This document shows, piece by piece, positions 14,599-43,471 of a DNA stretch of 43,471 bases. The notes beneath the pieces were generated by a model that saw only the letters and a list, made by a program, of their open reading frames with translations, did no database searches and was not told where the DNA came from. Location: the NCBI GenBank assembly GCA_017398805.1, contig JAFQEZ010000063.1:1-43471 (forward strand), read 5' to 3'. This DNA comes from Bacteroidaceae bacterium. GTDB taxonomy: Bacteria; Bacteroidota; Bacteroidia; Bacteroidales; Bacteroidaceae. Each line of letters starts with the position of its first letter. Within the stretch, counting starts at the first letter, position 1. The translations under genes and the position numbers were made by a program.

Positions 14599-14604
14599 AA
14601 AATT

Positions 14605-22114: not shown

Positions 22115-22345
22115 TTATTTATCATCCTCAAAGAGTCGAGCAGCATTATCGACGTTCTTTGCAGCCTCATTAATTAATGACGTACCGCCGCCGGCCTTAG
22201 TTGCAGACTTAAGGGGCTTCACTGCCTTTGCACCTTTAGATGCCGAACCACCTATTTTCTGTACCACCTTTGAACCTGATGGGCCACAACTTGCAACAAG
22301 TGCCACAAATCCCATAACTGCAAAAATAGAAATAATCTTTCTCAT
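22115..22345 (-). CDS. Small lipoprotein
   Basis: This 76-residue protein from the ATG at 22345 has a signal peptide and lipobox LVASC (Cys about 20), so it should be lipid-anchored. The mature part is short, rich in Ala, Gly, Lys and Ser, and ends in ARLFEDDK. That ending resembles the EKLFDDDEK segment of the upstream zinc-motif lipoprotein, suggesting the two are related by duplication. No catalytic motif is visible. It is the last gene before the operon's terminator, 47 bases after the previous gene. An in-frame extension to 22375 adds ten residues ahead of the signal peptide and is unlikely. Confidence 0.75.
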   Translation of the reverse strand: MRKIISIFAVMGFVALVASCGPSGSKVVQKIGGSASKGAKAVKPLKSATKAGGGTSLINEAAKNVDNAARLFEDDK

Positions 22346-22392
22346 AGTATCAATGTTAAAATTTAACAAAATCATGTAACGTAAAAACCTTC

Positions 22393-22827
22393 TTACTGAT
22401 AACTTTGCACCATACCATTGTCACAGAATGCACAATCATAGGCACACCCGGAATACATATCCACTATAACCCCTTGGCCACCACATGCGTTGCACGGAAC
22501 CAATACGGGCTGAGGCTCATAATAGTAATCCCGGGAGTCCTTCCTCATGTTAGGTACATTACCGGAATCCTCATCTCCATCATTATATTCAGCAGGTTCA
22601 TCATAATCATATGTATTGTAACTGCTACTGACATTCACTTTCTTTTCATCATCATCAAACAGTTTCTCTCCGGCTCTAATAACATCATCACCATATTTGG
22701 CAGCATCATCACCGAACTTTGCAATATCATCACCGAATTGGCTGAGTTTATTGGCATGGCGGCAACCCACAAAAGTCATGGAAACAGCCACCAAATATAC
22801 CAGCACTAAAAAACGGAAGTTTTTCAT
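22393..22827 (-). CDS. Lipoprotein with a DnaJ-type zinc-finger motif
   Basis: This 144-residue protein from the ATG at 22827 (an upstream TTG at 22833 is less likely) has a signal peptide and lipobox FVGC. A repeated segment FGDDIAK / FGDDAAK / YGDDVIR is followed by an acidic, Tyr-rich linker. The C-terminus carries CNACGGQG and CAFCDNG, a CxxCxGxG pair like half of the zinc-binding region of DnaJ (Hsp40). The motif may bind zinc and contact unfolded protein or redox partners. Being lipid-anchored it should face the periplasm or cell surface, unlike DnaJ, so interaction with the cytoplasmic Hsp70-like proteins of this locus is not straightforward. It lies between the TM protease gene and the small lipoprotein gene. 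Confidence 0.78.
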   Translation of the reverse strand: MKNFRFLVLVYLVAVSMTFVGCRHANKLSQFGDDIAKFGDDAAKYGDDVIRAGEKLFDDDEKKVNVSSSYNTYDYDEPAEYNDGDEDSGNVPNMRKDSRDYYYEPQPVLVPCNACGGQGVIVDMYSGCAYDCAFCDNGMVQSYQ

Positions 22828-22874
22828 AAACAACTATTCTAAATGTTCAACTAAAAGACTACGGTCCTACTACT

Positions 22875-25800
22875 TCATTTCTTACTCTTAGCTGGTGCTT
22901 GGAAAGCTACACACTCGTTGAACTTCATGGTCGCAACACGAACAAGAGTCATCTTATATTTATCCTCTGTTCCGATATATGACGATATCTGCAAATTATT
23001 CATTTTGTTTTGAAGCAGTCTTCTAGTTGCATTCAAATTTGGAGCAAACACAAGATTGTCAGTAGCAATTACCGCACGCTCGTTACTCTTTACATGTAAG
23101 AACACACCAGCCAGCCTATTCCATTTACTCAGCATCTCTACATCGACAATGCTGATAATATCCGAGTACTTGTCTGTTGCAACATGATCCGAGATATTGA
23201 ATACAATATTTTCCATCTTGACAAAAAGCTTTTCTGTAAGTTTTTTCTTAAGATCTACCTTATATTCGCCAAGATATTCTTTTGTAATCTCATACTTGTC
23301 AATATTCTCACATAGATTCAATTCACAGACATCACTCTCACTTATCTGTGTTTCGAAGAATTTATCAAGTATATCCTTATTCAGCAACGTTATGTTAGGA
23401 AATGAGGAAACAAACTTACTATCACTTGTTGAGCTCCGGGCCTCGTCATACCATACACGAAGATTGTTGATAAGGTTAAGCATCTTTAAGTACAAGTTCT
23501 CTAGTTTAGGATGTATCTCGCGCAGTGATGTTATAGCGACCCATGCAGCATAAATCTTATGCCCGATAGTTCTAATCCGCAACTCATTTGCAGAGATTTT
23601 CTTCTTACAATTATCGATATTGCTTTGAATTAAGTCCCTCTCTTCACGCCACTCATTACGAAGTTTTCTGTATCTTAAATATGAATATAGCGCATATATA
23701 CCACACAAAGGCAGTATCCAAATATAGCCCAGTCTCCAGTCTGACAGGAATTCATATCTTTCTATTTCTGCCACAAACTCATTGCCTATCCACCCGATAG
23801 CCGAATTCCAACAATAGAAAAGCAGTGTACAAATAATAACAACAGCAGTGAATATTCCCAACAACCACTTACATTTCTTCCTGAACGCTTCATAAGTCTC
23901 CTCCTGTAAACGTTCATGTTCTTTTATCTTCTCTTTCAGTTCAAGATTGTTCTCCTCTAGCAGTTTGATATTCTTGTCAACAAACTCATCGCGCGTATTC
24001 GGATCGGCATATATAGTCTTCAGTGCTTCCAGATATTGCAACAGTTCAACCCTGCGGGCCTTATACTGCTTCACTGCATCGAGTTGCACCTGCAGAGCTG
24101 CTACAGTAACATAATAACGTATTCTGGTATCTGCATTGTTTATCTCAAGAGCCGGAACAACTTTAAGTTCGCTCTGAGGCGATGACAAAGAGGCTACTTC
24201 TGTTATAATACAAGCGAAATTAAAGAGCCTCTGGTCATTGATATAAGAATATGGTATATAACAATATCCTCTGTCTCCCCAATCTTCACCCCAAGAGTTG
24301 CGTACAACAAAACGCTGTAATTTGTCACTGTAACCGACAATCACCATTGCATGGTATGAATGGCGCCATTCCGTCTCTTCTGCATTATTCTCCAGCATCT
24401 GAATCTCTTCTTCACTCGGCATTGGCACATAACCGTCCGACTGGCTGAATGAGTTGAAAAGCGTGAAGGAGGCAGCTACAGGATAACCGTCTGATAACGC
24501 CGACTTTATAGCATCCGCATTCCTATCAACATTGAGAGCTTTAATAAGCTTACGTGTCTCGGCATCCTTGTAAGCCTCTTCACTTGGTTTAGAGTCAAAG
24601 ACCTCCTCATTATATGGCCATACTTTCTCCAATGCTATACCATAGGTTCTAAGCGACTCAAGCGAAGGAACAAACTTTGAGCCACCATCATCGTTTACAG
24701 AGCCTTCCTCGTCCAAGTTCCTTGCGTTATAGTACAAGAAAGCCTCACTAAGGTCACAATCGTCTTTTTTGTTAACCTTCATCATGTACTCAAAAACAGA
24801 TGTCAAAGTGAAAGCGAGACATGAGCCTTGCTGTCCCTGGTTCTTGATTCGGCTGAAACTACTCCTCAAGTCTGCGCTATCTGCTGATACCTCATGGGGC
24901 ACATAAGTTTCTTCCAACGGCACCTCATCAACAGATGGCAACATACGGAATTTACTTTCACCGAAAGTAAAGAAGCCATCATCAATGAGACATTCCTTAG
25001 CCTTATCATTATTCTCCAGCTGCTCCTTGTATGTTTTAAGTTGCTCCTCAAGAGAACGGATAGTTACCTCGGACTGGATAAGCTTACTACTTATTGTCTG
25101 CAGTTCCTTAATAGGATTCACAGGTCTCTCACCGGCAATCTCATAATACTCTGCTGTATCCTCTTCTATAAAACGATCGATAGCCTCATTGTAAAGATCC
25201 TCAAAACTGGTACTGTTTGGTCTCTGCATTGAACTTGAAAATAGTTCGCACTCAGTCTTCGATAATAGAGCTGCAAGAACGGCTGTCTTTGCTGTCATAT
25301 CCTTGCAAGACTCAAAGTACTTCATGGTATCATCTACAATACTCTTCAACTCATTCTTTATATCCTCATATTCCTTGCAGTCCCTCTCCTGGCCTTCCCA
25401 TTTTTTCAAGAACCTTGAAAGTACATCATATTTGCCATTGAGTATGGAAGTCGCTGCGTCGTTAGCCCTATTTATATCTACGTGGTTGTTGTTCACCGAC
25501 TGGTTATCAATGGCCTTAAGCATTGTCTTCTTAAGAAGGTAGTCAGCAAATGCATACTTGTCAAAATATAACGAGGAAAAACCAATACCCATCACATCGT
25601 TTGCTTGAGCCTCGGCCAAAGAGAATACATCATTATAATGCGCTGAAAAGAGCAGGGCCATATTTGCCACCATATCGTAAAGCAGCGACGAGCCTTCATC
25701 ATCATTTAGTATTGAAACTCCATTCATAGACCTGTTCTGGATAGCAACGAACTTGCTCTGCTGAGAAGAATAATTAAGTTCGGCATACATTGACTTTATC

Positions 25801-26306
25801 TCCGCTACAGCATTGGAGGCCGGTTCAATTACATCCTTGCAACCAGGCTCTATGAACCTTGCCATGTCATCGCAATAACCAATAAAGTCAATATTTACAG
25901 GACGAGCCGATTCGTTAATTCCACGACAGAGCATCTTTGCAGTCTCGAAAGAGGCAGGCTTGTACAGCGGTAAATGTACGAAAACATACAGGACATCCTG
26001 AGCCGCCACATCAACTCTGAGTATTCTGTCAAATATATCATTAGACCAAAACTCACTAAGTTCTTCTATTGCGACACTCTGCCTTTCAGCAAACAGGTTT
26101 ACACTGTCAGGAACAGGCATTGACAGCTCCGCATATTCCTTAACATTAAGTTTTTCGAACGATATCTTGCCATTCTTCTCAGCCTGAACATTATAAAAAT
26201 GATTGAAATCTATTGCATCCTTATAATGGAGCAAGTATTGTCTGCCCACAGCATCAAGCAGTCTGGCAAATCCCTTATCTATAAAAATATGAACACTATG
26301 TAACAT
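22875..26306 (-). CDS. Large membrane-associated papain-like (C1) cysteine protease
   Basis: This 1143-residue protein lacks a signal peptide. An N-terminal helical/alpha-beta region of about 390 residues of unknown fold is followed by a coiled coil (about 400-435). A C1A-type peptidase domain (about 475-705) has the oxyanion Gln490, nucleophile Cys496 in QGSCLAF, His652 in HAMVIVGY and Asn670 in NSWGEDWGDRG. A second coiled coil (735-810) leads to two TM helices (about 814-834 and 859-877), another coiled coil and a C-terminal domain of about 220 residues. All catalytic residues are present. With two TM segments and no signal peptide, both N-terminal protease and C-terminus are predicted cytoplasmic. 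It sits between the tubulin-like gene and the lipoproteins. The target is unknown; operon partners are obvious candidates. Confidence 0.85.
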   Translation of the reverse strand: MLHSVHIFIDKGFARLLDAVGRQYLLHYKDAIDFNHFYNVQAEKNGKISFEKLNVKEYAELSMPVPDSVNLFAERQSVAIEELSEFWSNDIFDRILRVDVAAQDVLYVFVHLPLYKPASFETAKMLCRGINESARPVNIDFIGYCDDMARFIEPGCKDVIEPASNAVAEIKSMYAELNYSSQQSKFVAIQNRSMNGVSILNDDEGSSLLYDMVANMALLFSAHYNDVFSLAEAQANDVMGIGFSSLYFDKYAFADYLLKKTMLKAIDNQSVNNNHVDINRANDAATSILNGKYDVLSRFLKKWEGQERDCKEYEDIKNELKSIVDDTMKYFESCKDMTAKTAVLAALLSKTECELFSSSMQRPNSTSFEDLYNEAIDRFIEEDTAEYYEIAGERPVNPIKELQTISSKLIQSEVTIRSLEEQLKTYKEQLENNDKAKECLIDDGFFTFGESKFRMLPSVDEVPLEETYVPHEVSADSADLRSSFSRIKNQGQQGSCLAFTLTSVFEYMMKVNKKDDCDLSEAFLYYNARNLDEEGSVNDDGGSKFVPSLESLRTYGIALEKVWPYNEEVFDSKPSEEAYKDAETRKLIKALNVDRNADAIKSALSDGYPVAASFTLFNSFSQSDGYVPMPSEEEIQMLENNAEETEWRHSYHAMVIVGYSDKLQRFVVRNSWGEDWGDRGYCYIPYSYINDQRLFNFACIITEVASLSSPQSELKVVPALEINNADTRIRYYVTVAALQVQLDAVKQYKARRVELLQYLEALKTIYADPNTRDEFVDKNIKLLEENNLELKEKIKEHERLQEETYEAFRKKCKWLLGIFTAVVIICTLLFYCWNSAIGWIGNEFVAEIERYEFLSDWRLGYIWILPLCGIYALYSYLRYRKLRNEWREERDLIQSNIDNCKKKISANELRIRTIGHKIYAAWVAITSLREIHPKLENLYLKMLNLINNLRVWYDEARSSTSDSKFVSSFPNITLLNKDILDKFFETQISESDVCELNLCENIDKYEITKEYLGEYKVDLKKKLTEKLFVKMENIVFNISDHVATDKYSDIISIVDVEMLSKWNRLAGVFLHVKSNERAVIATDNLVFAPNLNATRRLLQNKMNNLQISSYIGTEDKYKMTLVRVATMKFNECVAFQAPAKSKK

Positions 26307-26451
26307 TCCTGGTTATTCTTAAAAGTTCCCATAAATTATGCCTGACAAAATTGTGCTCGGCATTAAACAAGCAACCCGTTATAGGCAAGACCAAGTCCCT
26401 TGAATACTCTTAGAATATTCAAAGAACTCAGTCCATTCACAAATATTTATT

Positions 26452-29343
26452 TTACTTCAGATTACCGATTGCATTCAGCAGATTCTTGCAAATGTAATCC
26501 CATTCTCTCTGGATTAGCTGTGTCTCTCCACTATTGGAAGTAAAATATGTCGAGCTATTCTTGTCCGAACAAACAACACGATCAATATACTCCTTAATTC
26601 CTCCATCAACAACACGTTTAATCTCTGCATCCCAAAACGATCTATTCATTGAATAGGTTGAATTGATCATCTTCTTGAACTTCTCCTTACACTCCGGGAG
26701 CACTATAGTCTTGAAGTTGTTAAACGCGGTATCGCGACGAGATGTATTGCCCAGTGACTGCCAACGATCATCCTTTCCAGCCATAGAGTCTTCATCCCAG
26801 TACATATACTTCTTGCGTAGGCAGCAGACATACTTCTTATGTTCTACACTCTCCTTACCAGTCTCGCGACCCTCAGCATCCATAACTCTCTCGTCTTCTT
26901 TAATAGTGACGCCGAAGAAGTGACCACAAACCCAATAGAACATAGCCTCATCCTTCATCTCCGGTTTGAGTTTAAAATCCTCGCTCTTCATCTTTTCAAA
27001 CAGCAACCTGTCAAAATGGGGATTAAAGACCGCCTCGCCATTAAGAGATGATCTTACAGCCTTCTCATATCTATCTGTCGCCATATCACTGAAGACATCT
27101 ATACAATAAGGAATCAAAGAACCATCAATACGACAGAAAATCATACGCTGCTTTGCACTCTCTTTGTCAACATAGAGGAAGTCCTTGCTCTCGACGTCTT
27201 GAAGGAAAGCTCTATCGTTGTGGAGACGAGAACGATAATTCTCGTATGGTTCATATATTGACACAATCCAATTCTTTGCAATAGCATCAGCTACTGACTG
27301 ACCAGTTGTGTTAACACACTGACCACGGTCATTTATCTTGAGCCAACGCGCTGACTTACGTGCAATCTCTGACTTGAGCTTTTTATATTCATCATCGGGC
27401 AATGCGTCTATAATTTCAGTTATGACCTTATTCTTGTACTCCTTAACCTTGTCAAGAGATGAAGTATAAGCAATTATTGAATGGTCAAGAACATCAATAT
27501 CATCTATATCAATCAAAGAATCCTTAAGGCTTTTTGTAAACTCTGAAACAACTACGCTTCCGCTGTCTACCGTCATATTAAGTCTTTCCTCGTATGAAAG
27601 GTCATACTCAAAGACAAGAGCGTCAGGAGTCACACTTTGAATATTGTTCAGCGCATCCTCATAACGCGCCTTAAGTTGCTCGAGTCCCTTGTCAACATCC
27701 TTGAGTTTAGCCAAAGAATTCTCGATATATGCCATCAACGCAACAAAGATATCACGTGCAACTTCACGACGTTTTGCCTGCAATGTAGCTTCGAGGATTT
27801 TCTTTGCAGGACGACCGACACACTCTTCTAGAACCTCCTGGTTCCTTGAATCAAGTTTAAAGCCCCAATTATGTTTATTGTCCTTATAGTCAATAAATGC
27901 TTTTGCATCAAACGCCTCTTTGGCCTCATCTCTCTCTTTATTCTTTATACGAGCTTCGTCTTCCATCTCACCCTTGTACTTGTTACACAAGAAATAGAGT
28001 TGGTCGAGAAACTTTATTGAATTGCCAACACCCTCCTCTTTCTTAAGGAAGCCATTCACCTTATCCCTCACAGCATCCTTCAGACTTGCGATTCTTGCAT
28101 TTATCATCTCCTCAGACGGGAAATCAACCAAATTCAAAAGATATTTCTTGATAATATCCTTGTTTCCTGTCTCCGTATTCTTTACATCAAGCAAAGGCAA
28201 TCTGGTAGCGGCAATTTGTTTTGGCGAGTATATGCTATCTATGAGCATGTTGTATTCATCGCCATCTTCGCGTATACCAACTTCCTGAGTCCACGCCAAC
28301 GCCTGCTGCTGAACATCAGAACCCTCCTGACGCATCTTGCGTATGAGCTCAACTGCAGCCTTGAGAGAATAAGCCTCAGCCATCAATTCTCCCTTATATA
28401 CAACCTGACATGCACCAAGACCCTGTACCCAACCAAGCTTCTGGCCTACATGATGTTTGCCTTCTTTAGGGCCAACATTATTGATAATGTTTTCAACCTT
28501 GTCACCGGCTTCTGCACCGCAAGCATAAAGACATGTACCGATTACCTCGCAAAGAGACCTTACATTCTTCAGAGTATAACCATTCTCTGATGTATTGTCT
28601 ATTACATAGAAACCGTCAAAGAACGGTTCGCGGAGAACCGATTTCTTACCGCCCATTTCAAGTTCTACAGGGTTCGCCTCACTTGCAGTCTGCAGATAGT
28701 CAAGATCAAGGATTGAAGAATACGCATTAAGTTCAACATTAGGTGTCTTGGTTCCTGCCACATCCATAGCCCTGAACACACTATGGGTAACACCATAACC
28801 ATAAAGGTTTACATGGTTGCCGTATTTCTGTTTGATAGCATTACCGATTGTAATGAAAGAGCCAGCACCTGTACCACCGGCAACAGACATTACCATATGA
28901 ATATTGACACCATTTGCGACATCGGCAGAATGATCTACGTTTGTTACCTCATTCACCAAAGCACTGATACGGTTCATAACAACATCTAGTACCATCTCTG
29001 TATACAAACGTCCTGTTGTTCTTACAGCCTTTGCACCTTTGGAAATTCTATTGTCAATATTATTGGTGTTTCCATCAAACATCCATGCGTACTGACCTTG
29101 ATTTTCGCGTCTTACCCTGTAGAACTCACGAGGATTAGATGCAGAAACAATCTTGATAAAGTTGTCTGTAATATTAGATGCAAGGCCTGCATCTTGATCC
29201 ATGTCAGTCTGGAAGTCAACTGTGCAAAACGCAACAGAAGAAGGAATGTTACCAACACCATGTTCCTCTTCATAAAGTTTCTTTGCAAAAGAAATTGCCA
29301 GGTTACCTGTACCACCCAGTCCTAAATAAATTGTAGGTTTCAT
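26452..29343 (-). CDS. Divergent tubulin/FtsZ-like GTPase (first copy)
   Basis: This 963-residue cytoplasmic protein begins with a nucleotide-binding glycine loop GLGGTG (8-13). It has the tubulin/FtsZ signature as AGGTGAGSF (155-163) after a hydrophobic strand, at the spacing expected for the GTPase domain. The rest (about 400-963) is largely helical and charged, far longer than FtsZ, and resembles the large tubulin-like (Tubulin_2-type) proteins of bacteria. I infer GTP binding and possible filament formation; the T7-type catalytic loop was not identified with certainty. The gene lies 17 bases after the lipoprotein/TM gene, in the leftward operon with vWA and protease genes. A second, shorter tubulin-like gene lies in the rightward operon at 39,779. 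Confidence 0.88.
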   Translation of the reverse strand: MKPTIYLGLGGTGNLAISFAKKLYEEEHGVGNIPSSVAFCTVDFQTDMDQDAGLASNITDNFIKIVSASNPREFYRVRRENQGQYAWMFDGNTNNIDNRISKGAKAVRTTGRLYTEMVLDVVMNRISALVNEVTNVDHSADVANGVNIHMVMSVAGGTGAGSFITIGNAIKQKYGNHVNLYGYGVTHSVFRAMDVAGTKTPNVELNAYSSILDLDYLQTASEANPVELEMGGKKSVLREPFFDGFYVIDNTSENGYTLKNVRSLCEVIGTCLYACGAEAGDKVENIINNVGPKEGKHHVGQKLGWVQGLGACQVVYKGELMAEAYSLKAAVELIRKMRQEGSDVQQQALAWTQEVGIREDGDEYNMLIDSIYSPKQIAATRLPLLDVKNTETGNKDIIKKYLLNLVDFPSEEMINARIASLKDAVRDKVNGFLKKEEGVGNSIKFLDQLYFLCNKYKGEMEDEARIKNKERDEAKEAFDAKAFIDYKDNKHNWGFKLDSRNQEVLEECVGRPAKKILEATLQAKRREVARDIFVALMAYIENSLAKLKDVDKGLEQLKARYEDALNNIQSVTPDALVFEYDLSYEERLNMTVDSGSVVVSEFTKSLKDSLIDIDDIDVLDHSIIAYTSSLDKVKEYKNKVITEIIDALPDDEYKKLKSEIARKSARWLKINDRGQCVNTTGQSVADAIAKNWIVSIYEPYENYRSRLHNDRAFLQDVESKDFLYVDKESAKQRMIFCRIDGSLIPYCIDVFSDMATDRYEKAVRSSLNGEAVFNPHFDRLLFEKMKSEDFKLKPEMKDEAMFYWVCGHFFGVTIKEDERVMDAEGRETGKESVEHKKYVCCLRKKYMYWDEDSMAGKDDRWQSLGNTSRRDTAFNNFKTIVLPECKEKFKKMINSTYSMNRSFWDAEIKRVVDGGIKEYIDRVVCSDKNSSTYFTSNSGETQLIQREWDYICKNLLNAIGNLK

Positions 29344-29360
29344 AGTTTTATATTTTTATA

Positions 29361-30296
29361 TCATGTTGTTTCAATTGTCACTTTTTTACCTTCCTCATTA
29401 GAGATAGTAATCTGTTCCCTGCGAACCTTCTCGCCATCAATATCATAGAATCTGGCTCCGGAGAATGCAATACGATTTCTTCTGGCTCCATTCTTGATTG
29501 TCACCGGAGATGTCCAGAAATCGTTTACCTCATACATCCTACTTCCTTTAAAAAGTTTCTCGAAGAATGTATCACGTTTTTTGCTGTCATTTGTACATAC
29601 AAGTTCATAACATCCACTCATCCTGATCGCTTTAGGCCCATATCCGTCATTATAGTCAATCATCACCTTTGTAAAGCCTGTTGAACCCCAGATAAAATAT
29701 CGAGATATTATAAACCATAATATACATAGAACAATAAAGCTGACAGCACCGATTATCAGTCCTTTCTTAAGCGGATTCATCTTATCAACCTTCTCAACAG
29801 AAAAGACTATCCTGTTGTCTTTATTGACTACAGCAACCTCCTCCATCATTTTCTTCTCGGTTTCAATTGTGCGTACTTCCCATTTATGTACACCGGTAGC
29901 AGCATCAGGATTGAAAACTACGCCAAGTTCAAGGGTCACATTCTCTACATATTTCCCATCAACTTTATTAGAGACCTCAAACTGATTATTGTCCACAGGC
30001 TCACCATTAACATACACCTGAGCAACATCAGTTCCCATAGGCTCTGTTTTGCCATCTTCACCAATCGTAAAGAATCCCATCTTGAAACTGGCATCTTCAC
30101 TCAATGCATCCGCTTCAAAGACAAATTTCAGTTGTTTCTTTTTCATAACAGGCGAGTATTCATTCCATAGAAAGTCATCATAACACTCCACTCTGCCCAT
30201 AGAATACTCTATACCACCCGCCTCTTCCTCTGAACAAGAACTAAAGCAGACGAAGGCAACAACAAATACAAGCAAGGAATACAATTTATTCAACAT
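29361..30296 (-). CDS. Lipoprotein with an internal TM helix and a cytoplasmic beta domain
   Basis: This 311-residue protein has a signal peptide with a lipobox-like SSC (Cys21). A periplasmic beta-rich region follows (about 25-165), with two Ig-like-looking segments. One strong TM helix (179-202) leads to a beta-rich domain of about 105 residues predicted in the cytoplasm. Lipid anchor plus TM helix is unusual and would fix both ends of the periplasmic part to the inner membrane. It could transmit a periplasmic state to the cytoplasmic tubulin-like or Hsp70-like proteins. I do not recognise the family. Its start overlaps the end of the vWA gene by 11 bases, implying translational coupling. 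Confidence 0.75.
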   Translation of the reverse strand: MLNKLYSLLVFVVAFVCFSSCSEEEAGGIEYSMGRVECYDDFLWNEYSPVMKKKQLKFVFEADALSEDASFKMGFFTIGEDGKTEPMGTDVAQVYVNGEPVDNNQFEVSNKVDGKYVENVTLELGVVFNPDAATGVHKWEVRTIETEKKMMEEVAVVNKDNRIVFSVEKVDKMNPLKKGLIIGAVSFIVLCILWFIISRYFIWGSTGFTKVMIDYNDGYGPKAIRMSGCYELVCTNDSKKRDTFFEKLFKGSRMYEVNDFWTSPVTIKNGARRNRIAFSGARFYDIDGEKVRREQITISNEEGKKVTIETT

Positions 30297-31707: not shown

Positions 31708-31730
31708 CTTTATACATTATAATATTAAAC

Positions 31731-31765
31731 ACCGCATGCATCTCTTTCGAAGAGATGCATGCGGT
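31731..31765 (-). promoter_or_regulatory. Leader hairpin of the leftward operon
   Basis: Two 16-base arms (ACCGCATGCATCTCTT / AAGAGATGCATGCGGT) enclose three bases. On the minus-strand mRNA it lies 24 bases before the vWA start codon. Its core, read in the transcript, is CATCTCTTCGAAAGAGATG, identical to the hairpin ahead of the divergent operon. Confidence 0.85.
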
Positions 31766-31932
31766 TGATAACAAGCGATACTTGATATGTGGTATTCAAT
31801 TAATTTTACTTGATTTTATGGGTGCTTTATGTTCGTTTCCAACTCCAACACGTATAAGTCAAGAATAACATGCCAGATTATTTTGTCATATAAAAAAATA
31901 ACTATTGAATCTTTTTTTATTTAAAAAATGTA

Positions 31933-31940
31933 TATATTTG
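31933..31940 (+). promoter_or_regulatory. -7 box for the rightward operon
   Basis: TATATTTG followed by CAAAATATAG is an exact TAnnTTTG match, about 150 bases before the vWA-Hsp70 start. The leader would then contain both the short (31991-32009) and the long (32037-32069) hairpins. Confidence 0.55.
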
Positions 31941-31990
31941 CAAAATATAGAAACAAAAGACTTGACTAATTGAGAGCTAACCAAGATTTG

Positions 31991-32009
31991 CATCTCTTCG
32001 AAAGAGATG
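31991..32009 (+). promoter_or_regulatory. Short leader hairpin sharing the common core
   Basis: CATCTCTTCGAAAGAGATG forms an 8-bp stem with a CGA loop. It is exactly the inner core of the two larger hairpins but lacks their outer GCATG arms. It is in the same orientation as the hairpin at 32037-32069. Confidence 0.75.
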
Positions 32010-32036
32010 TTGCTTGTCCAATCAGAGTTCTTTTCA

Positions 32037-32069
32037 CCGCATGCATCTCTTCGAAAGAGATGCATGCGG
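32037..32069 (+). promoter_or_regulatory. Leader hairpin of the rightward operon
   Basis: Two 15-base perfect arms (CCGCATGCATCTCTT / AAGAGATGCATGCGG) around a CGA loop end 22 bases before the first start codon. The sequence is the reverse complement of the hairpin at 31731-31765, so both divergent mRNAs carry the same element. Confidence 0.85.
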
Positions 32070-32091
32070 CGTTATTTAATTTTATATAAAC

Positions 32092-36048: not shown

Positions 36049-36065
36049 TAAAATAAGCAAAAAAA

Positions 36066-37956
36066 ATGAAAAGAATATTATTTTCGGCATTATTAGCCTT
36101 GATGTGCATCGCTCATGCAAGCAGTCAGAAATATGAGATAAGATACGATTCTATAACAAATAGCATCAAGTACATCAAGCAACCTGACAATCTAATAGTT
36201 GACGGCAAGTTCCATATATATAGTGGTAATGTAAAATTGTTCGCGTCACAAAAGTTCTATGGATATGACGGAAATACTAGACCGGGAGAGGGGATTGTAC
36301 CGGAAGGATATACTCCTAAATATAAAAAAGTGTGGAATACATATCCAACAAAACCTCAAACGTTCAATCTCAAGAAAAATGACCATTCAATATATATGCA
36401 AAAGTTACATGGGGGGGGAAATAAGTGACACTGTGGCAATATATGAATCATTTAATCCTCAAGATTCGATTCATAAAGAGATAATATTAGGACAGTTCAG
36501 CTTCGAGCATTATGTTATCTGCGAAGGCGACAGCCTTGTCTTAAAGATAAGAAAAAGCAACTCCGATATTTCTTTCAATGGAGGTCTATATATAAAGGAC
36601 GACACTCTTAAGGAAAAGCTGGAAATCAAGGCACAGGATACCATTACTGAGATCCGTGTTACGCTTCCTCCTGAATATGAAGATGCCAGACTCTGTATAA
36701 AGGGAAATTTTGCCTTTGGTAATGAAGAGTTTGAGTGCGAGCGTGAGATAAGCTCCATTTCTAGAACGGCTGATAAAACAGCTAATCTCAAAGACAGCAA
36801 TTCTGAATCGGAGGAATCCGGCACTAATTTTATAGTGTTAGCTGTTTTCGGTATCGGTATTGGTATAATAGTTATCATTTGCTACAAGAAAGGTATATTC
36901 TCGAAGATGAAGAAATTTGTCAAGCATGACAGTGAAGATGAAAAAGCAAATAACGATGTTGAAGCGACCAAGAAGGAACTCTCCGATATGAAAAAAAAGG
37001 TTAACGAGTTAAACCGGGAACTTAATGAAGCGCAGAGCGAAAAAGGTAGGTTCCAAAACCTGTTGGCACAAAAGGATACAGAACTTAAAAACGCACATAG
37101 CAAAATTGAGACAATCAAGGAGGATTGCAAAAGGGAATTCGATAAAAAATATTCAGCATTGCAGGAAGCAAAGGAAAAGAGTGACCGCGCGCTGATAAGC
37201 AGCAAGGAAGAGTGCAGGCGTCTCACGAATAATGTCGCAGTCCTTGACTCTGACCTTAAAGCAGCAAACGTAGTTATTGCAACAAAAGACGCAGCTATGG
37301 AGAAGTTTACATCAAGAATTACGTTTGTGCCGTTCGCCGAAAAATACTGTATTGAGATAAAGAAACTCATCAATGTAGCCGACAAGATAGCCAAGGAGGC
37401 CGAGTGCATGTACAACTTGGACACAATTCAGGACCCATGGCACATAATCAAAGCGATATCAAAATATAGCACCTCGGTCTGGGATATCAATTTGGAGCAG
37501 TTCTTTACCGAAGTGCAGATGGTATGCAGTGGGCAAGTGGTTCTCAATGATACTTTACTGTCAAAATTCAAGCAGGACTCCCCTGCGGCAGAACTGGAAA
37601 ATTCGTTAAAAGGATACTTCTTCAACAGCTACCTGGAGAAATATATAAATGCATTGGTTGTATTCAATGAGTCTTTAGCCGGACAGCATGTACTCACGGC
37701 AGGAGTTCAGGCATCAGAAACAGAAATATTCAGGAACTTCAGAAAAGAAATAACAGAAATTGTTGACAGCCTGGGAATCACAGTGATGTCTGTTAAACTT
37801 TTTGAGGATATCGGTCAAAAAGTTGATTTACAGGTAGAGATGGGAGATTTCGGTGAGTTTGCACCAGGTTCTATCGTAGAGATTGAGAATTGCATTGTAT
37901 ATCTTACGGGTAGTACAAAGCCAGACACAAAAATCAAAGTAAAAGTTCAAGAATAA
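36066..37956 (+). CDS. Transmembrane coiled-coil protein split by a frameshift at a G8 tract
   Basis: As written, the frame opened at 36066 stops at 36428 (120 residues), while the body continues in another frame to 37956. With seven instead of eight G at 36411-36418 the two halves join into one 629-residue protein. In that form it has a signal peptide (1-21), a periplasmic beta-rich region (about 22-245), one TM helix (253-273), a charged coiled coil (about 295-395) and a helical C-terminal domain of about 230 residues. The downstream half alone would lack a signal peptide, and its first Met codons are out of context. No known family was recognised. It starts 17 bases after the vWA-Hsp70 gene. 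The break may be phase variation, slippage during expression or a sequencing error. Confidence 0.8.
36411..36418 (+). repeat. G8 homopolymer inside the coiled-coil gene
   Basis: Eight consecutive G in an A/T-rich gene, at the exact point where the reading frame is lost. Deleting one G restores the frame. Confidence 0.95.
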
Positions 37957-37967
37957 AAAATATTGAT

Positions 37968-39323
37968 ATGAAGAAAATTATTTTTATCGGATTAGGCGTG
38001 CTTTTGCTATTTTATATAGTCCTTCAATGCACATCAAAGGATCCAAGAGAGAAATACAGTGGCAACTTTAAAGTTACGCTGCCAACATTAGGCGATGGAG
38101 AGTCAACTGGCACGCTCAAAAGAGTTTACATGGTAGTAGACGACTCAAAAAGTATGCTGGGTTATTTAGATTATTTAGATATGCAAAAAACAGAAAGTAG
38201 TGACAGCACAAAAGAAAGCAATTTCATATACAACATAAGCACATTCTTGAATAATTTCAAGTATAAATATAATGGAAACGCAGAAGTCTGCTGCAGTGGT
38301 AAGTATAATGATGTTGAGTTCTTAACAGCTCTAAGGAAGGAGCGTAGTAAGCTATTAAAAGCGGATTCATCGTTTGTTGACGAGCTCATAAAGAATGCAT
38401 GTGGAGAGGTTAATGACACGACTGTATCTGTTGTCGTTTCGGACATGGTTCTGTCATGGGGCTCAAATCGCCTTAAAAACGAAGGTTATGACTTCAACAG
38501 GAGAGATCTTGAAAACGGATTGAAGGGACAGGTTAACAAAGCGGCATTGGAAGTCAAAACCAAAGGATATGATATAATGATTGTAAAGTATGATTGTGAT
38601 TTCAACGGTCATTACTACTACAATAACAGGGAGAATCATATTGATAAGCTTAATAAGGAGCACCTGTTTGATTACAAACTTATGAGGAACAGACCATATT
38701 ATCTTATGTTTATTGGCAAAAAAGAATTCCTTGTCAACCTCTATAACGATTGTCTTGAAGAAAGCGACTTTGTGTATACTTCGTTTGGCCTTAATGAAGG
38801 TAAAGAGTCTGAATATAGGATTGCAGAGAAGAATACCAAACGCTGGACTAAGTGCGAGGCAAAGGATACTATGACAGGCACTTTCTATTGTGATAAAGAC
38901 TACAAGAATGAGGTTACTGAATTTGAGGTCGAGTATGACAAATTTATTTTGCCAAGATATATAAATATCGATAGTATCAGAGTTCATGTAAGTGATCGCG
39001 GTTTTAAGATAAAGGAGTACAGTTATAATTATAGCAAAAACAAATTCAGATATACATTGGTACTGCCCAAGCACAATGAAATAAACAAACCGGAGATTGA
39101 GGTCCAGATAATTCTGAAGCATAACATAAACCCATCATCTATCACAATAATGGATGATGTTGCAACTAAAGAAAACGTAAATGATATGCTCGATCAACTT
39201 AATGGAAAGACATGGGGATTCTCGGCAATTATTGATGCAATAGATGATGCTTATTATGGAAAGGATAAACGAGAGGAGTCTATTGTGATATCGAGAGCTA
39301 AGATTAAATTCATTAATGATTAA
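37968..39323 (+). CDS. Membrane-anchored vWA-domain protein
   Basis: This 451-residue protein has an N-terminal hydrophobic anchor (4-20) that could be a TM helix or a lipoprotein signal (LQC, Cys21). The vWA domain (about 50-260) has a complete MIDAS start DDSKS (58-62) and a second strand ending VVVSDMVLS. The C-terminal region (about 290-400) is beta-rich, followed by an acidic helical end. It should sit on the periplasmic face of the inner membrane or on the outer membrane if lipidated. With the proteins at 30286-31707 and 32092-36048 it makes three extracytoplasmic vWA-like modules in one locus. It begins 11 bases after the coiled-coil gene. Confidence 0.85.
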   Translation: MKKIIFIGLGVLLLFYIVLQCTSKDPREKYSGNFKVTLPTLGDGESTGTLKRVYMVVDDSKSMLGYLDYLDMQKTESSDSTKESNFIYNISTFLNNFKYKYNGNAEVCCSGKYNDVEFLTALRKERSKLLKADSSFVDELIKNACGEVNDTTVSVVVSDMVLSWGSNRLKNEGYDFNRRDLENGLKGQVNKAALEVKTKGYDIMIVKYDCDFNGHYYYNNRENHIDKLNKEHLFDYKLMRNRPYYLMFIGKKEFLVNLYNDCLEESDFVYTSFGLNEGKESEYRIAEKNTKRWTKCEAKDTMTGTFYCDKDYKNEVTEFEVEYDKFILPRYINIDSIRVHVSDRGFKIKEYSYNYSKNKFRYTLVLPKHNEINKPEIEVQIILKHNINPSSITIMDDVATKENVNDMLDQLNGKTWGFSAIIDAIDDAYYGKDKREESIVISRAKIKFIND

Positions 39324-39334
39324 AAAATACTACT

Positions 39335-39775
39335 ATGTTTAATTTTACTGAAAGATTGGCATCCATAATGTATGGTTGGACGATGGATGCAACGGAGAGT
39401 TCATTTGACCAAGTATTTGATAGCGCAAACGCAGGATACGGCATGGAATATTGTCTCTTTTTCTTGCTTGGGGTAAGTTTGCTGTCTACTCTTACATTTT
39501 ACTTTGGAATTTCATCCAACATAAGAAATTCTACCCCAAAAAACTATTTGCTGACTATGATTATTGGCTATTTGGTTCTTGTCGGAGCAAACTACCTTGG
39601 TATTGCAAGCATATACGGCAACGAAGCTATCGAATCATTCAACCTCGTCAAGATCTGCTTGATGGACATATTCTACTTTGTTGTTCTATATGAGATTTTC
39701 TCATTAGTATTCAAGGGTTTTTCAAATGCATCATGGATAGACCTGATATCAATTCTGTTTAACAAAAAAATCTAA
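39335..39775 (+). CDS. Small integral membrane protein with three TM helices
   Basis: This 146-residue protein has a short N-terminal amphipathic stretch and three hydrophobic helices (about 38-60, 70-92 and 108-130). There is no signal peptide, lipobox or catalytic motif, and I do not recognise the family. It lies between the membrane vWA gene (11 bases) and the second tubulin-like gene (three bases), so it may be a membrane anchor for the GTPase. The C-terminus ends in a short basic tail (NKKI). Confidence 0.7.
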   Translation: MFNFTERLASIMYGWTMDATESSFDQVFDSANAGYGMEYCLFFLLGVSLLSTLTFYFGISSNIRNSTPKNYLLTMIIGYLVLVGANYLGIASIYGNEAIESFNLVKICLMDIFYFVVLYEIFSLVFKGFSNASWIDLISILFNKKI

Positions 39776-39778
39776 TAT

Positions 39779-41368
39779 ATGGATAATTTATATGTATTTG
39801 CCATTGGCGGAAGCGGTGAAAGGGTTGTTAAGTCACTTGTGATGATGCTGGCAACGGGAATGAATGTCGGCGCCCAACGAATAATACCGGTATTTATTGA
39901 TAATGACGAGAAGTCAAAAGCATATCTTAAATGCAAAGACCTGATAAAATTCTATAATGCCGATCCAGAGGTAGACAGGAAATTTGGTGCTAATACCTTG
40001 TACAAGAGGTTTGATGCAAATCCAGAAAAATGGGGCAGTTTCTTCCATACACAGATTGCCGACCCCATTGTACTTAACAAAACTGGCGAGGCTATTGGTA
40101 ACCTCAGGGATGTCATAGGATTCAGGGAAGATAAGAGTAATGAAGTGGCATGCTCAATTTCGGAAGAGATCAACCTCCTCTTTACAAATGACGACCTTGA
40201 GATGCCGTTGAGCGTGGGTTTTGTTGGAAATCCGAACATTGGCAGCATTGTGCTTAACTCACTTTCTCTTCAGGATGAAAAATTTGAGGCAATCAAGAGA
40301 AGTATTACTCCAAACGATGGCGTTATTGCAGTAGGTTCTCTTTTCGGCGGCACAGGTGCTGCCGGCATGCCATTGGTTATCAACACGTTCAAGAATCTCG
40401 ACGAAACGCACAAGCCTATATTGGGTGGTATTGCCGTTCTCCCTTATTTTACAACAGATGGCCAGCCAGGAGATAACGAGAAAGTGAATCTTGACATCAA
40501 AAGGTATGATGTCAAATCCGATGCATTCTTGACCAAGACAAGAGCTGCGCTCATGTATTATGACAAACATATGAAGGTTGGTTATGACTATATGTACTAT
40601 GTTGGCAATAGCGAAGCACCCGATACATTCAGACACTGTCGCGGAGGTGCTAACCAAGACAATCCTTATCATATAATTGAGGCGATGGCAGCACTCTCTG
40701 TCATTGATTTCTCAAACATGAAAAAACAACAGGATATCGTATACAAGCGTCCTGTATTTGGCTTTAATCAAGAAAACGGTTCTCTGTCAACAAATCTCTC
40801 AGGCATCAAAAACCCTGACTTTGCAAGATGTCTGGTGAAGTTCCAGATTATGAAAGAGATGTTCAAGGGTGAGGCAAAAGAAGACTACATGCTTAAATGG
40901 GCTGTAGATACAAACAAAGACTATGTTTGTGAAATTGGCTTTGACAATGTATTCCGCGATTCGATATTGGGTAAAAACACAACAATAGATCAAGCGTGGG
41001 GCGTTTGCGGACTGATGAGAGAATTTGATGCGTGGATGGATGATTTGTCTAAGGATTACATTAAGCGAAGGTTCCTCCTCTATAATAAAACCGCACAGGG
41101 TGTTACCGCAGACAATGTGACAACGCATTTCTATACAGACGAGAATTACGGTATTGCAAAGATATCCCCTGCAGGTTTCATCGCATTATTGAACCCCGAG
41201 ACTTACAAAAAGGCAGACATTGCATCACATATGCAGAAAGCATTCAGAGGGGAATATCCTAATACAAACCGCAATAGAATAGCAGAAGGGGCAACCTTGC
41301 CGATGCTGTTCAAAACTATATCATTGGCCTTAGATAAAGTGCTGGATGAAAACTGTATTAAACTATAA
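39779..41368 (+). CDS. Divergent tubulin/FtsZ-like GTPase (second copy)
   Basis: This 529-residue cytoplasmic protein opens with a nucleotide-binding loop AIGGSGERVV (8-17). It carries the tubulin/FtsZ signature as FGGTGAAGMP (189-198), preceded by the strand GVIAVGSL. It lacks the long helical extension of the 963-residue paralogue and is closer to a minimal GTPase core plus C-terminal domain. The two copies share fold hallmarks but little obvious sequence, so heteropolymer formation or division of labour is possible. The gene is three bases behind the small membrane protein and ten bases ahead of the second Hsp70-like gene. Confidence 0.85.
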   Translation: MDNLYVFAIGGSGERVVKSLVMMLATGMNVGAQRIIPVFIDNDEKSKAYLKCKDLIKFYNADPEVDRKFGANTLYKRFDANPEKWGSFFHTQIADPIVLNKTGEAIGNLRDVIGFREDKSNEVACSISEEINLLFTNDDLEMPLSVGFVGNPNIGSIVLNSLSLQDEKFEAIKRSITPNDGVIAVGSLFGGTGAAGMPLVINTFKNLDETHKPILGGIAVLPYFTTDGQPGDNEKVNLDIKRYDVKSDAFLTKTRAALMYYDKHMKVGYDYMYYVGNSEAPDTFRHCRGGANQDNPYHIIEAMAALSVIDFSNMKKQQDIVYKRPVFGFNQENGSLSTNLSGIKNPDFARCLVKFQIMKEMFKGEAKEDYMLKWAVDTNKDYVCEIGFDNVFRDSILGKNTTIDQAWGVCGLMREFDAWMDDLSKDYIKRRFLLYNKTAQGVTADNVTTHFYTDENYGIAKISPAGFIALLNPETYKKADIASHMQKAFRGEYPNTNRNRIAEGATLPMLFKTISLALDKVLDENCIKL

Positions 41369-41378
41369 CTGAAAGACC

Positions 41379-43471
41379 ATGAAAAATTATATTTTTGGAA
41401 TGAAGGCAGAGAAGTCTGAGTCACAGAATATGGAAGACTTCTTTGTGAATACAAAAAATGAGGGCGATGACTGGAATCCGTATAACAATGCATATTTCAA
41501 CCTGCCAGAGAATCGACCGGAATGTAACGATACAGGAAGAATTACATCAATCCCATCTCCATATGCAAGAATGCACATAACAGACCTTGCATTTATGGAG
41601 AGTAACTGCGGAGCTGGAGTATTGCCAAGTGACTACTTCAAAGCAATGTCTCATTGTCTGGACATCTTTGAGCTGATGTTCCATTCCGACACAATCGATT
41701 TTAAGGAGAAGGAGATTAATGTAGAGAAAATTCCCCTTATCAGCACTCATAGCCATGATACCAATGTTATAAATTATCTTGAACAAAATCCTAAGGTCAA
41801 GAACTATATTATGACCTTGGACATGTTCCGCGATGAATATAATAGGATCATCCGTTCGAAGAATGTTCCTGGATATATGTTTGATTTCACTTCTCTTTAC
41901 TTGATAAAGAAGAATGGCAAGGTCATTGCATCGACATCGCCATTTACAGGATTCTATGCTAAAGCAGATTGTAATCTGTCAGGCCTTGTTGTGAATGGAA
42001 GAGAAATTCTTAGCGCAGATTCTAAGACTTGGAAGGACATTAGCACGCGTAGCGAAGAATTCCGCACCTTTATGTATTCGCTGTTAAAAGATACCGGTTT
42101 GAGTATGCTTTTTGTTAATCTCTATAACCATGTATTCTACAGCCTTAGTGAGGAGCAGAGAAGGAACATAGACAATGGACCCAGGTTCAAGGAGAACCCT
42201 GCGTATAGAAAATTCAATATAGGTGGCAGTGCATTACAACAATTGCAGGGATTCAACGTGTATATCAGACCAGACGGATTGGACTGCTCGTATCTGAAGT
42301 ACCTGCTTTACCTTGATAATGCAGTTGAGCTTGAAATAGATGAGAGTGATTATTGTGTTGATTTGGCAAACCGTCAGTTTAATGGAAGGTTGACCCAGTG
42401 GCTGGGAGTAAATGACATACTCGCAGACTCGCTGTTTGTGCTTACATATGATATCAACGATAACTATCTGACATTCCCATACAGGGATTATACAGATGGT
42501 CTACTGAAACACCGTTGTCTGATACCTATTAAGCGCGACGCCCTTAACTATTTCTCTATCATTCAGTTGCAGCAGCAAATTAAAATAGAGAGAAAAGATG
42601 CAGCTACATACCTGGTAACTTTGGTATTGCCACTCGCTAATGGCGGGACCACTGTAATACGCAGAGAGTACAAGTCTGGCGATGATGTAAAATTCCCTAA
42701 TGGAAAGGTGCTCCAGGGAGACGATATGAAACCGTTTGCATTCGGTATATATCCGTTCGTGAAGTGTAGTAACTATCGTAATATGTACAAAGTGCTGTTC
42801 TATAATAGCTTTAACGAGTATCGTCTGGAGTTCTTCAAGAGAGATGGAAACAATACAATCCAGCCACTTGCACTTAATGAACACTGTAGCAACAAGACCA
42901 ATAGCATTGACAATCAGGAATCTCGTGTCAACTGCGAGTATCATGACATCAATGTGCAAGCAGGCATTGAATTTGTCGAGGTGACAGTTGACGGGAAATA
43001 CACATCACTTATTGTTCCTAAACTGAGAGTCGTTGGTGCCCCGGGACAGGTTGGACACGCAGACATACCGCATAACCCAGGCAAAGTCACTGTAGCAATT
43101 GACCTTGGCACGACAAATACTTTCATAGCTTATACCCACACACCTATGGAAGGTATGCCAATGCAACCTATCAGGGAAATCAACACACACCACAGAGATG
43201 CTGCCGGAACCGAGTGGAACGAACTTACATTCATGAACAAAAGAGTCGAAAGGGAAATTATTGCAAACTTACCCGACAAGCACCGTGAGGACCTATATTT
43301 GCGAGTGAATGACCAAGCAGAGCAGGCTGCTGGATGGCAAAATGCACGTAGCCATGTTGCCACATGGCTGTCACCACAGTTAAATGAGTTCATTCCTTCA
43401 AGAATTGACCCAGTAGGTGATGGAACGAACTACAAGTTCCCAATCCCTACAGTTATCAATTTCCTGCGTAC
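41379..43471 (+). CDS. Hsp70-like ATPase, partial (continues past the window)
   Basis: An open frame starts at the ATG at 41379 and runs 697 codons to the window edge without a stop. There is no signal peptide or TM helix. The first 565 residues have no motif I recognise. Then the phosphate-1 loop of an Hsp70/actin ATPase appears as AIDLGTTNT, with Asp575. The rest of the ATPase domain must lie beyond the edge. The layout, a long N-terminal module followed by the ATPase, parallels the vWA-Hsp70 protein at the head of the operon, but here everything is cytoplasmic. It follows the second tubulin-like gene by ten bases. Confidence 0.85.
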   Translation, partial: MKNYIFGMKAEKSESQNMEDFFVNTKNEGDDWNPYNNAYFNLPENRPECNDTGRITSIPSPYARMHITDLAFMESNCGAGVLPSDYFKAMSHCLDIFELMFHSDTIDFKEKEINVEKIPLISTHSHDTNVINYLEQNPKVKNYIMTLDMFRDEYNRIIRSKNVPGYMFDFTSLYLIKKNGKVIASTSPFTGFYAKADCNLSGLVVNGREILSADSKTWKDISTRSEEFRTFMYSLLKDTGLSMLFVNLYNHVFYSLSEEQRRNIDNGPRFKENPAYRKFNIGGSALQQLQGFNVYIRPDGLDCSYLKYLLYLDNAVELEIDESDYCVDLANRQFNGRLTQWLGVNDILADSLFVLTYDINDNYLTFPYRDYTDGLLKHRCLIPIKRDALNYFSIIQLQQQIKIERKDAATYLVTLVLPLANGGTTVIRREYKSGDDVKFPNGKVLQGDDMKPFAFGIYPFVKCSNYRNMYKVLFYNSFNEYRLEFFKRDGNNTIQPLALNEHCSNKTNSIDNQESRVNCEYHDINVQAGIEFVEVTVDGKYTSLIVPKLRVVGAPGQVGHADIPHNPGKVTVAIDLGTTNTFIAYTHTPMEGMPMQPIREINTHHRDAAGTEWNELTFMNKRVEREIIANLPDKHREDLYLRVNDQAEQAAGWQNARSHVATWLSPQLNEFIPSRIDPVGDGTNYKFPIPTVINFLR

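What the first reader, a model, noticed from the sequence alone, without database searches (positions are those of the whole stretch)
22115..43471. Divergent locus combining two tubulin-like GTPases, two Hsp70-like ATPases, three vWA proteins and a TM papain-like protease
Sequence shows tubulin signatures (GGTGAGS at residues 156-162 of one protein, GGTGAAG at 190-196 of the other), Hsp70 phosphate loops (DPGTT, DLGTT), vWA domains facing the periplasm, several single-TM proteins and a catalytic-complete C1 protease, all in two divergent operons with shared leader hairpins. Divergent FtsZ-like families in membrane-linked operons with vWA genes have been predicted bioinformatically (Makarova and Koonin), but the combination with TM-anchored Hsp70/actin-fold ATPases and a papain-like protease is not one I recognise. 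I infer an envelope-spanning machine in which both major cytomotive folds work under periplasmic vWA sensing.
Basis: partly seen in the sequence, partly recalled or inferred. Interest (0 to 1): 0.9.

Follow-up and report, generated by a model that had tools for sequence, protein, structure and literature searches.

The report
Tubulin, Hsp70-like and vWA envelope machine
The locus holds a four-gene set (periplasmic vWA protein, small membrane protein, tubulin-like GTPase, Hsp70-like ATPase) that recurs in the same order in many Bacteroidota, usually followed by genes resembling a proton-driven motor and often by secreted protease or nuclease genes, so it looks like an undescribed envelope machine whose role is still untested.

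Summary
The genes are real. The right arm (32092 to 46722; it runs past the window) is a conserved unit. vWA lipoprotein, 3-TM protein, tubulin-like GTPase and Hsp70/actin-type ATPase all occur in 64 of 80 related loci, 60 of the 68 with enough flank. In 44 of 69 loci with room, MotA/MotB (ZorA/ZorB)-like genes follow; in 24 of 52 outside Hymenobacter, a secreted protease or nuclease. The tubulin gene is in 81 of 81 genomes of one genus, inferred to be Hymenobacter, but in only 13 of 395 across the phylum. The window's subtype lacks the motor. The left arm is a separate FtsZl1 (Makarova-Koonin) module, not found in the 80 right-arm loci. Yet both arms share an identical 33-nt leader hairpin found nowhere else in the assembly, so they are probably co-regulated here. 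Kaur et al. 2020 predicted tubulin, HSP70 and vWA conflict systems, with DO-GTPases that this genome lacks above cut-off. Best reading: an NTP-driven, envelope-spanning sensor controlling hydrolases, probably for conflict; a housekeeping envelope role is a serious rival.

The parts
30286..31707 (-). 473-aa secreted vWA-like protein, first gene of left arm
   Evidence: Pfam VWA E 0.042, sub-threshold; DVTIS at 48; N-terminal hydrophobic stretch 8-26; counterpart in G004 VWA_2 1.5e-5
29361..30296 (-). 311-aa predicted lipoprotein with a second TM (179-197)
   Evidence: a 268-aa protein with similar layout sits at the same place in G004
26452..29343 (-). Tub1, FtsZl1-type tubulin-like GTPase, 963 aa
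   Evidence: PF13809 E 8.1e-47
22875..26306 (-). 1143-aa papain-like (C1) protease with two hydrophobic stretches after the protease domain; no N-terminal signal seen, so the protease is probably cytosolic (inference)
   Evidence: Peptidase_C1 E 2e-17; QGSC 493, HAMVIVG 652, NSWG 670; 814-832 and 859-877; calpain-type (C2) protease at the same place in G004
22393..22833 (-). 146-aa small protein, predicted lipoprotein with a CxxC-type C-terminus
   Evidence: sequence; no Pfam match over cut-off
31732..31764 (-). leader hairpin of the left arm, 24 nt from the start codon
   Evidence: RNA fold z -6.8; two copies in assembly
32037..32069 (+). leader hairpin of the right arm, 23 nt from the start codon; exact mirrored copy
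   Evidence: RNA fold z -7.6; two copies in assembly
31989..32009 (+). 21-nt partial third copy of the hairpin core in the right-arm leader
31933..31940 (+). Bacteroidota-type -7 box TATATTTG pointing to the right arm
   Evidence: pattern match; consensus recalled, no test of function
31860..31867 (-). near-match -7 box TATTCTTG pointing to the left arm
   Evidence: pattern match
32092..36048 (+). VH, 1318 aa: signal peptide, periplasmic N-terminal part (vWA-like unproven), TM 441-459, cytosolic Hsp70/actin-type ATPase
   Evidence: family in 4 of 80 loci
36066..37956 (+). coiled-coil single-TM protein, reading frame broken in this assembly (ORFs 36066-36428 and 36259-37956)
   Evidence: uninterrupted 699-aa relative in G029
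37968..39323 (+). 451-aa vWA lipoprotein (core gene 1)
   Evidence: DDSKS at 58; family in 76 of 80 loci; Cys21 71 of 77
39335..39775 (+). 146-aa 3-TM protein (core gene 2)
   Evidence: family in 68 of 80 loci; 3 TM in 62 of 68; fused to the vWA protein in G082
39779..41368 (+). Tub2, tubulin-like GTPase, 529 aa (core gene 3)
   Evidence: family in 78 of 80 loci; T1/T4 invariant in 53
41379..43471 (+). 1177-aa Hsp70/actin-type ATPase (core gene 4); ends at 44912, beyond the window
   Evidence: family in 78 of 80 loci; phosphate loops 74 of 74

Best explanation
Shown by comparison: the right arm is the Bacteroidota core of an envelope-linked system made of a periplasmic vWA lipoprotein, a 3-TM inner-membrane protein, a cytosolic tubulin-like GTPase and a cytosolic Hsp70/actin-type ATPase. 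Inferred mechanism: the vWA protein senses or grips a ligand in the periplasm; the 3-TM protein passes this to the two NTPases, which assemble or switch at the inner membrane; in most relatives they work with a peptidoglycan-anchored, proton-driven ZorA/ZorB-like motor, and the output is release or activation of secreted hydrolases (aspartic, trypsin-like or transglutaminase-like proteases; NS-type, SNase or EEP-type nucleases) that attack an invader or a damaged envelope. In the window subtype the motor is replaced (inferred) by the TM-anchored VH ATPase and the TM coiled-coil protein, with a secreted transglutaminase-like protein as the candidate effector. The left arm is a second, FtsZl1-type module of similar logic with a papain-like protease, brought next to the first and placed under the same leader-hairpin control. 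Most likely role: biological conflict, such as response to phage or other envelope attack.
For: Core linkage: 64 of 80, contiguous 59, median gaps 9-17 nt. vWA-3TM fusion in G082. ZorA- and ZorB-like genes both present in 44 of 69 loci; ZorB-like profile to solved ZorB 1.9e-8 and a MotB-related protein 7.3e-15; ZorA-like to solved ZorA 3.8e-5 over the TM part, other hits there being coiled-coil chance; NCBIfam ZorB1 5.4e-8, ZorA 1.1e-5, below cut-offs; TM Asp invariant in 19 of 19. Interchangeable hydrolases: Pfam gag-asp 4.6e-17, Trypsin_2 2.5e-22, Endonuclease_NS 1.1e-50, SNase 5e-22, Exo_endo_phos 2.4e-6, transglutaminase 1.4e-12, and 1.9e-6 in the window operon; present in 21 of 33 non-Hymenobacter loci with ZorA- or ZorB-like genes against 3 of 19 without, those 3 being the window subtype (members of the subtype listed). 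Left-arm protease swapped, papain to calpain. A homologous Tub2/ATPase pair sits with DO-GTPases, GAP1-N2 and TIR in G033. Restriction and defence-type genes lie beyond the right arm. Two IMG/VR contigs carry the full six-gene set. Hairpins.
Against: Tub2 was in 81 of 81 genomes of one genus, inferred Hymenobacter, often with the same chromosomal neighbours: unlike a mobile defence gene. 28 of 52 non-Hymenobacter loci had no recognised hydrolase downstream, and 19 of 69 loci had neither ZorA- nor ZorB-like genes. Window proteins hit no PADLOC defence model beyond weak coiled-coil or chance matches. No defence-gene enrichment was tested against a control. Profile comparisons to FtsZ (probability 1%) and DnaK (11%) are weak. 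No structure or experiment.
Confidence: 0.45

Rival explanations
1. Housekeeping envelope machine: the core, with its motor, maintains or remodels the cell envelope (in the sense of Makarova and Koonin's membrane-remodelling proposal), and the neighbouring hydrolases are periplasmic quality-control enzymes.
For: 81 of 81 genomes in one genus and a shared chromosomal neighbourhood there; vWA, ZorB/OmpA-like and TM parts; the FtsZl1 proposal.
Against: Patchy elsewhere: 13 of 395 in the phylum at E 1e-20, 23 of 393 in the order, 13 of 120 relatives including own. Hydrolase types change from locus to locus, and several are nucleases.
Confidence: 0.3
2. Secretion, uptake or contact-dependent antagonism: the machine moves its hydrolases or other cargo across the envelope.
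For: Envelope-spanning parts with a motor-like pair; several secreted hydrolases per locus, e.g. protease plus nuclease.
Against: No outer-membrane channel or secretion ATPase recognised in the operons listed (only selected proteins were given to Pfam). The hydrolases have their own signal or lipoprotein N-termini by eye.
Confidence: 0.12
3. Left and right arms are unrelated systems that landed side by side in an island, and the shared hairpin is a copied sequence of no consequence.
For: The arms occur separately in congeners and did not co-occur in the 80 loci. The right flank carries restriction genes and serine-recombinase-like proteins.
Against: The hairpin is exact in mirror image over 33 nt, sits at the same distance from both start codons (24 and 23 nt) and occurs nowhere else in the assembly.
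Confidence: 0.35
4. The 270-nt stretch between the hairpins is an invertible promoter (phase variation).
For: Perfect 33-nt inverted repeats about 270 nt apart in a Bacteroidota genome.
Against: A promoter-like -7 box points outward on both sides, so inversion would swap promoters, not switch one off; each repeat is itself a palindrome.
Confidence: 0.08

Closest known systems
FtsZl1 / Tubulin_2 vWA systems (Makarova and Koonin 2010, PMC2875224; parts 1-2 of 5 read)
   Same: Tubulin-like GTPase in an operon with vWA proteins, TM proteins, kinases, OmpA-type proteins. Tub1 is a member by PF13809.
   Different: No Hsp70-like ATPase, ZorA/ZorB-like pair or proteases in the parts read. The Tub2 family is only distantly related: PF13809 in 9 of 14 members at E 0.01 or better, best 2.4e-7, not the window's own.
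GTPase-centric (DO-GTPase/GAP1) conflict systems with tubulin, HSP70 and vWA (Kaur et al. 2020, PMC7159879; passages and part 9 of 22 read)
   Same: Tubulin, HSP70, vWA, TM proteins, swapped effectors; a homologous Tub2/ATPase pair sits in such a locus in G033.
   Different: No DO-GTPase2 over cut-off in this genome. In the paper tubulin and HSP70 are separate themes, in firmicutes and actinobacteria; here they are adjacent genes in Bacteroidota. MotA, MotB, TolQ give 0 occurrences in the paper, Zorya 0.
Zorya anti-phage system (ZorA/ZorB)
   Same: Relatives have a ZorA/ZorB-like pair with TM Asp and OmpA-like C-terminus.
   Different: The window genome has no ZorB-like match. No ZorC, ZorD or ZorE was recognised among the proteins scanned; these were not searched for specifically.
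FtsA / MreB / DnaK (ASKHA ATPases)
   Same: Phosphate loops 74 of 74; weak profile hits to MreB 1.1e-4 and Hsc70 0.0035; Pfam FtsA in 16 of 40, Ppx-GppA 7, MreB 3 members at E 0.01.
   Different: PF00012 is not in the list of families matched by the 40 members; large N-terminal half of unknown fold.

Membership tests
FtsZl1 / Tubulin_2 (Tub1) | PF13809 domain | tested here: met
   E 8.1e-47 over cut-off
FtsZl1 / Tubulin_2 (Tub2) | PF13809 domain | tested here: inconclusive
   9 of 14 members at E 0.01 or better, not the window member; Tub1/Tub2 profiles align only over the T1 region, probability 71%
Tubulin/FtsZ superfamily (Tub2) | T1 and T4 glycine loops | tested here: met
   invariant in 53; PF00091 weak in 10 of 14
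Tubulin/FtsZ superfamily (Tub2) | three-dimensional fold and polymerising T7 loop | not testable with these tools
   structure prediction switched off; FtsZ profile comparison only 1% probability
Hsp70 (PF00012) | HSP70 profile match | tested here: not met
   the own-genome PF00012 matches lie on C81 and C23, not in this locus; none listed among 40 members
ASKHA (actin/Hsp70) ATPase superfamily | two phosphate-binding loops | tested here: met
   74 of 74 for the 1177-aa family; 5 of 5 for VH
Zorya | ZorA/ZorB motor pair in this genome | tested here: not met
   no ZorB-like match in G000
Zorya | ZorC/ZorD or ZorE effectors | not tested
   no targeted search; none among proteins scanned
DO-GTPase/GAP1 systems | DO-GTPase gene | tested here: not met
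   PF19993 best E 0.016, below cut-off, genome 87% complete; PF19975 not searched genome-wide
DO-GTPase/GAP1 systems | GAP1 protein | not tested
   not among Pfam matches of the locus proteins; no genome-wide search
vWA (MIDAS) domain | DxSxS motif and Pfam match | tested here: inconclusive
   motif-like in two proteins, Pfam sub-threshold or absent
Peptidase C1 | Pfam domain with Cys, His, Asn | tested here: met
   E 2e-17; motifs at 493, 652, 670

The most novel reading that the evidence does not exclude
A periplasmic immune machine: a proton-driven ZorA/ZorB-type motor, a tubulin-like GTPase and an Hsp70/actin-type ATPase act as one energy-driven switch under a periplasmic vWA sensor and unleash interchangeable secreted proteases and nucleases against invaders at the envelope; the window's form replaces the motor by a second membrane-anchored ATPase and runs two tubulin-based modules from one hairpin-controlled promoter region.
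Probability: 0.25. Interest if true: 0.92.

Novelty: new variant of a known kind. Interest (0 to 1): 0.7.

Why it matters
If it holds, members of the tubulin, actin/Hsp70 and MotA/MotB superfamilies work together in one bacterial envelope system. Its presence throughout Hymenobacter gives a tractable place to test what FtsZl1-like tubulins do, a question open since 2010. The swapped hydrolases suggest a common switch driving different outputs.

Tried and rejected
One single eight-part or larger system: rejected because the left arm, the FtsW-PBP/kinase cassette and the right arm occur separately in congeners and left-arm tubulin and protease were not found in the 80 right-arm loci (tubulin again, where the six profile hits were all Tub2 members). 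The protease check used a single-sequence profile only.

Plain Hsp70 chaperone: rejected as a family assignment. Plain Zorya or plain DO-GTPase system: rejected for this genome. Phage gene: no match for Tub2 in the phage collection. In plasmids, 6 records, the best a 1.77-Mb Prevotella replicon, plus cyanobacterial ones. Four IMG/VR contigs matched and at least two carry the whole six-gene set, but whether those contigs are truly viral was not checked.

Invertible promoter: considered, judged unlikely. Coiled-coil matches to JetC, LmuB and apolipoprotein- or spike-like chains were set aside as composition matches. Defence-island enrichment was not tested against a control; only the window's own flank was scanned (8 proteins, 5 with matches).

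Correction made on checking: the 'non-Hymenobacter' count (24 of 51) wrongly left out L107 (Solirubrum); one search gives 24 of 52.

Literature: searches, 106 of an open-access library found no description of this combination; subscription papers and preprints are largely not held. PMC11090510, PMC9871819 and PMC11890865 were seen as passages only; other titles as listings.
Full report
WHAT IS THERE. The window is the first 43,471 bases of a 128,657-base contig in an unnamed Bacteroidales-type genome of 2.71 Mb, 87% complete. Two divergent gene runs start from 31707(-) and 32092(+). Left arm: a secreted vWA-like protein, a lipoprotein with TM, Tub1, a 1143-aa papain-like protease, a 146-aa small protein. 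Right arm: VH (signal peptide, periplasmic part, TM, ATPase), a coiled-coil TM protein (frame broken), vWA lipoprotein, 3-TM protein, Tub2, a 1177-aa ATPase; then, beyond the window, a 211-aa protein and a 365-aa secreted protein with a transglutaminase-like domain (E 1.9e-6). Left of the left arm lies a cassette FtsW-PBP fusion, Ser/Thr kinase, FHA protein, 326-aa protein, PP2C.

RIGHT ARM IS A UNIT. From an alignment of 14 Tub2 proteins, 80 loci with named records were fetched (best 80 of 555, so biased to close kin). Profiles find the vWA family in 76, the 3-TM family in 68, Tub2 in 78 and the ATPase in 78 of 80. All four are in 64 of 80; of 68 loci with enough flank, 60 have all four (7 lack a recognised 3-TM gene, 1 a vWA gene); 59 are strictly contiguous. 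Median gaps are 12, 17 and 9 nt. In G082 the vWA and 3-TM proteins are one fused gene (profile E 4.3e-15 and 2e-10). The ATPase keeps both phosphate loops in 74 of 74.

WHAT FOLLOWS THE CORE. The next gene varies but four of its clusters share a C-terminal domain (pairwise hhalign 96-100%; a fifth, C18, matches unevenly at 4-98%). In 69 loci with 4 kb downstream, ZorA- and ZorB-like genes are both present in 44, ZorA-like only in 5, ZorB-like only in 1, neither in 19. The ZorB-like family has an invariant Asp in its single TM (19 of 19) and matches a solved MotB-related protein at 7.3e-15 and ZorB at 1.9e-8. The ZorA-like family matches ZorA at 3.8e-5 over the TM part. Outside Hymenobacter, 24 of 52 loci have a secreted aspartic, trypsin-like or transglutaminase-type protease or an NS-, SNase- or EEP-type nuclease downstream on the same strand: 21 of 33 with ZorA- or ZorB-like genes, 3 of 19 without (Pfam of one representative each). 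A subtilase follows in L128, and an S9 peptidase cluster occurs in 10 loci, nearly all Hymenobacter.

THE WINDOW'S SUBTYPE. VH is found in 4 of 80 loci. In a tree of 65 Tub2 proteins the window and L067, L068, L069 form a fully supported group, and all five VH rows fit one branch (support 94; L076 is a long branch, so its place is unsure). The window genome and three congeners with Tub2 have no ZorB-like match anywhere, whereas G071 and G044 have one each, at the Tub2 locus.

DISTRIBUTION. Tub2: 13 of 120 relatives, 23 of 393 in the order, some of a distant subfamily without the vWA gene, 13 of 395 in the phylum at E 1e-20 (counts include the own genome). In one genus it is in 81 of 81 genomes, five of them with split or partial matches; a member is 89% identical to Hymenobacter qilianensis, so the genus is inferred to be Hymenobacter. 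This is the strongest result against a purely mobile defence role.

LEFT ARM. Tub1 is FtsZl1. In 120 relatives only 5 match, own included. In G004 a vWA, a lipoprotein/TM protein, a Tub1 relative and a 1147-aa protein stand in the same order alone, the last with a calpain instead of a papain domain. The three other Tub1 relatives have different neighbours. The FtsW-PBP cassette recurs whole in G015 and G042 and in part, at a contig end, in G040, without tubulin genes in the stretches fetched.

LINK BETWEEN THE ARMS. Each leader carries the same 33-nt hairpin, 24 and 23 nt before the start codon, in mirror image; with up to 3 mismatches the assembly holds no other copy. Both leaders fold far better than shuffled sequence (z -6.0 to -7.6). 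The VH leader of G029 shows no such hairpin. This suggests joint control in this organism only.

KNOWN AND NEW. Makarova and Koonin 2010 and Kaur et al. 2020 predicted related systems. In G033, a congener, a homologous Tub2 and ATPase (profile E 1.8e-44 and 5.4e-18) sit with two DO-GTPase proteins (one over cut-off, one below), a sub-threshold GAP1-N2 and a TIR protein, which ties this family to the Kaur systems. New here, as far as the searches go, are the adjacency of tubulin and Hsp70-like ATPase in Bacteroidota, the ZorA/ZorB-like pair and the swapped secreted hydrolases.

MECHANISM. Shown: gene content, order, conserved catalytic motifs, signal and TM features. Inferred: that the vWA protein senses, that the NTPases assemble at the membrane, that the motor or VH transmits energy, that hydrolases are the output, and that the purpose is conflict. 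The rival housekeeping role is serious because of Hymenobacter.

Noticed in passing
window 12444-22024: FtsW-PBP fusion protein (1496 aa called; start probably about 30 codons later by its relatives) with kinase, FHA, 326-aa and PP2C genes: a cassette that recurs in congeners G015 and G042, and in part in G040.
   Followed up: partly
L035 and L036 (contig 46.9 to 80 kb): Right flank holds a type IIG restriction enzyme, a type II methyltransferase, a GIY-YIG-type PDC-S57 match, a PDC-S31 match and an Orf5/DUF262-like protein, plus serine-recombinase-like proteins.
   Followed up: partly
window 36066-37956: Coiled-coil gene broken by a frame change in this assembly; could be an assembly error. 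Uninterrupted in G029.
   Followed up: no
contig 44923-44955 (L035): Strong hairpin between the ATPase and the next gene; hairpins of other sequence at the same place in G029 and L069.
   Followed up: no
window 22032-22065: Perfect 17-bp hairpin upstream of the FtsW-PBP gene, of different sequence from the shared leader hairpins.
   Followed up: no
L029 (G033): A congener locus with Tub2, ATPase, DO-GTPase-type proteins, sub-threshold GAP1-N2 and TIR; its vWA and TM genes were not hit by the core profiles.
   Followed up: partly
L195 and L197: Two IMG/VR contigs (103.6 and 58.3 kb) carry vWA, 3-TM, Tub2, ATPase, ZorA-like and ZorB-like genes; viral nature not checked.
   Followed up: partly
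genome G000:C38:18106-18336: A second PF00091 match over cut-off (210-aa open frame) besides the main FtsZ.
   Followed up: no
G853, G855, G914 (genus of G844): Tub2 appears as two adjacent pieces in three of the 81 genomes, possibly broken copies or sequence errors.
   Followed up: no
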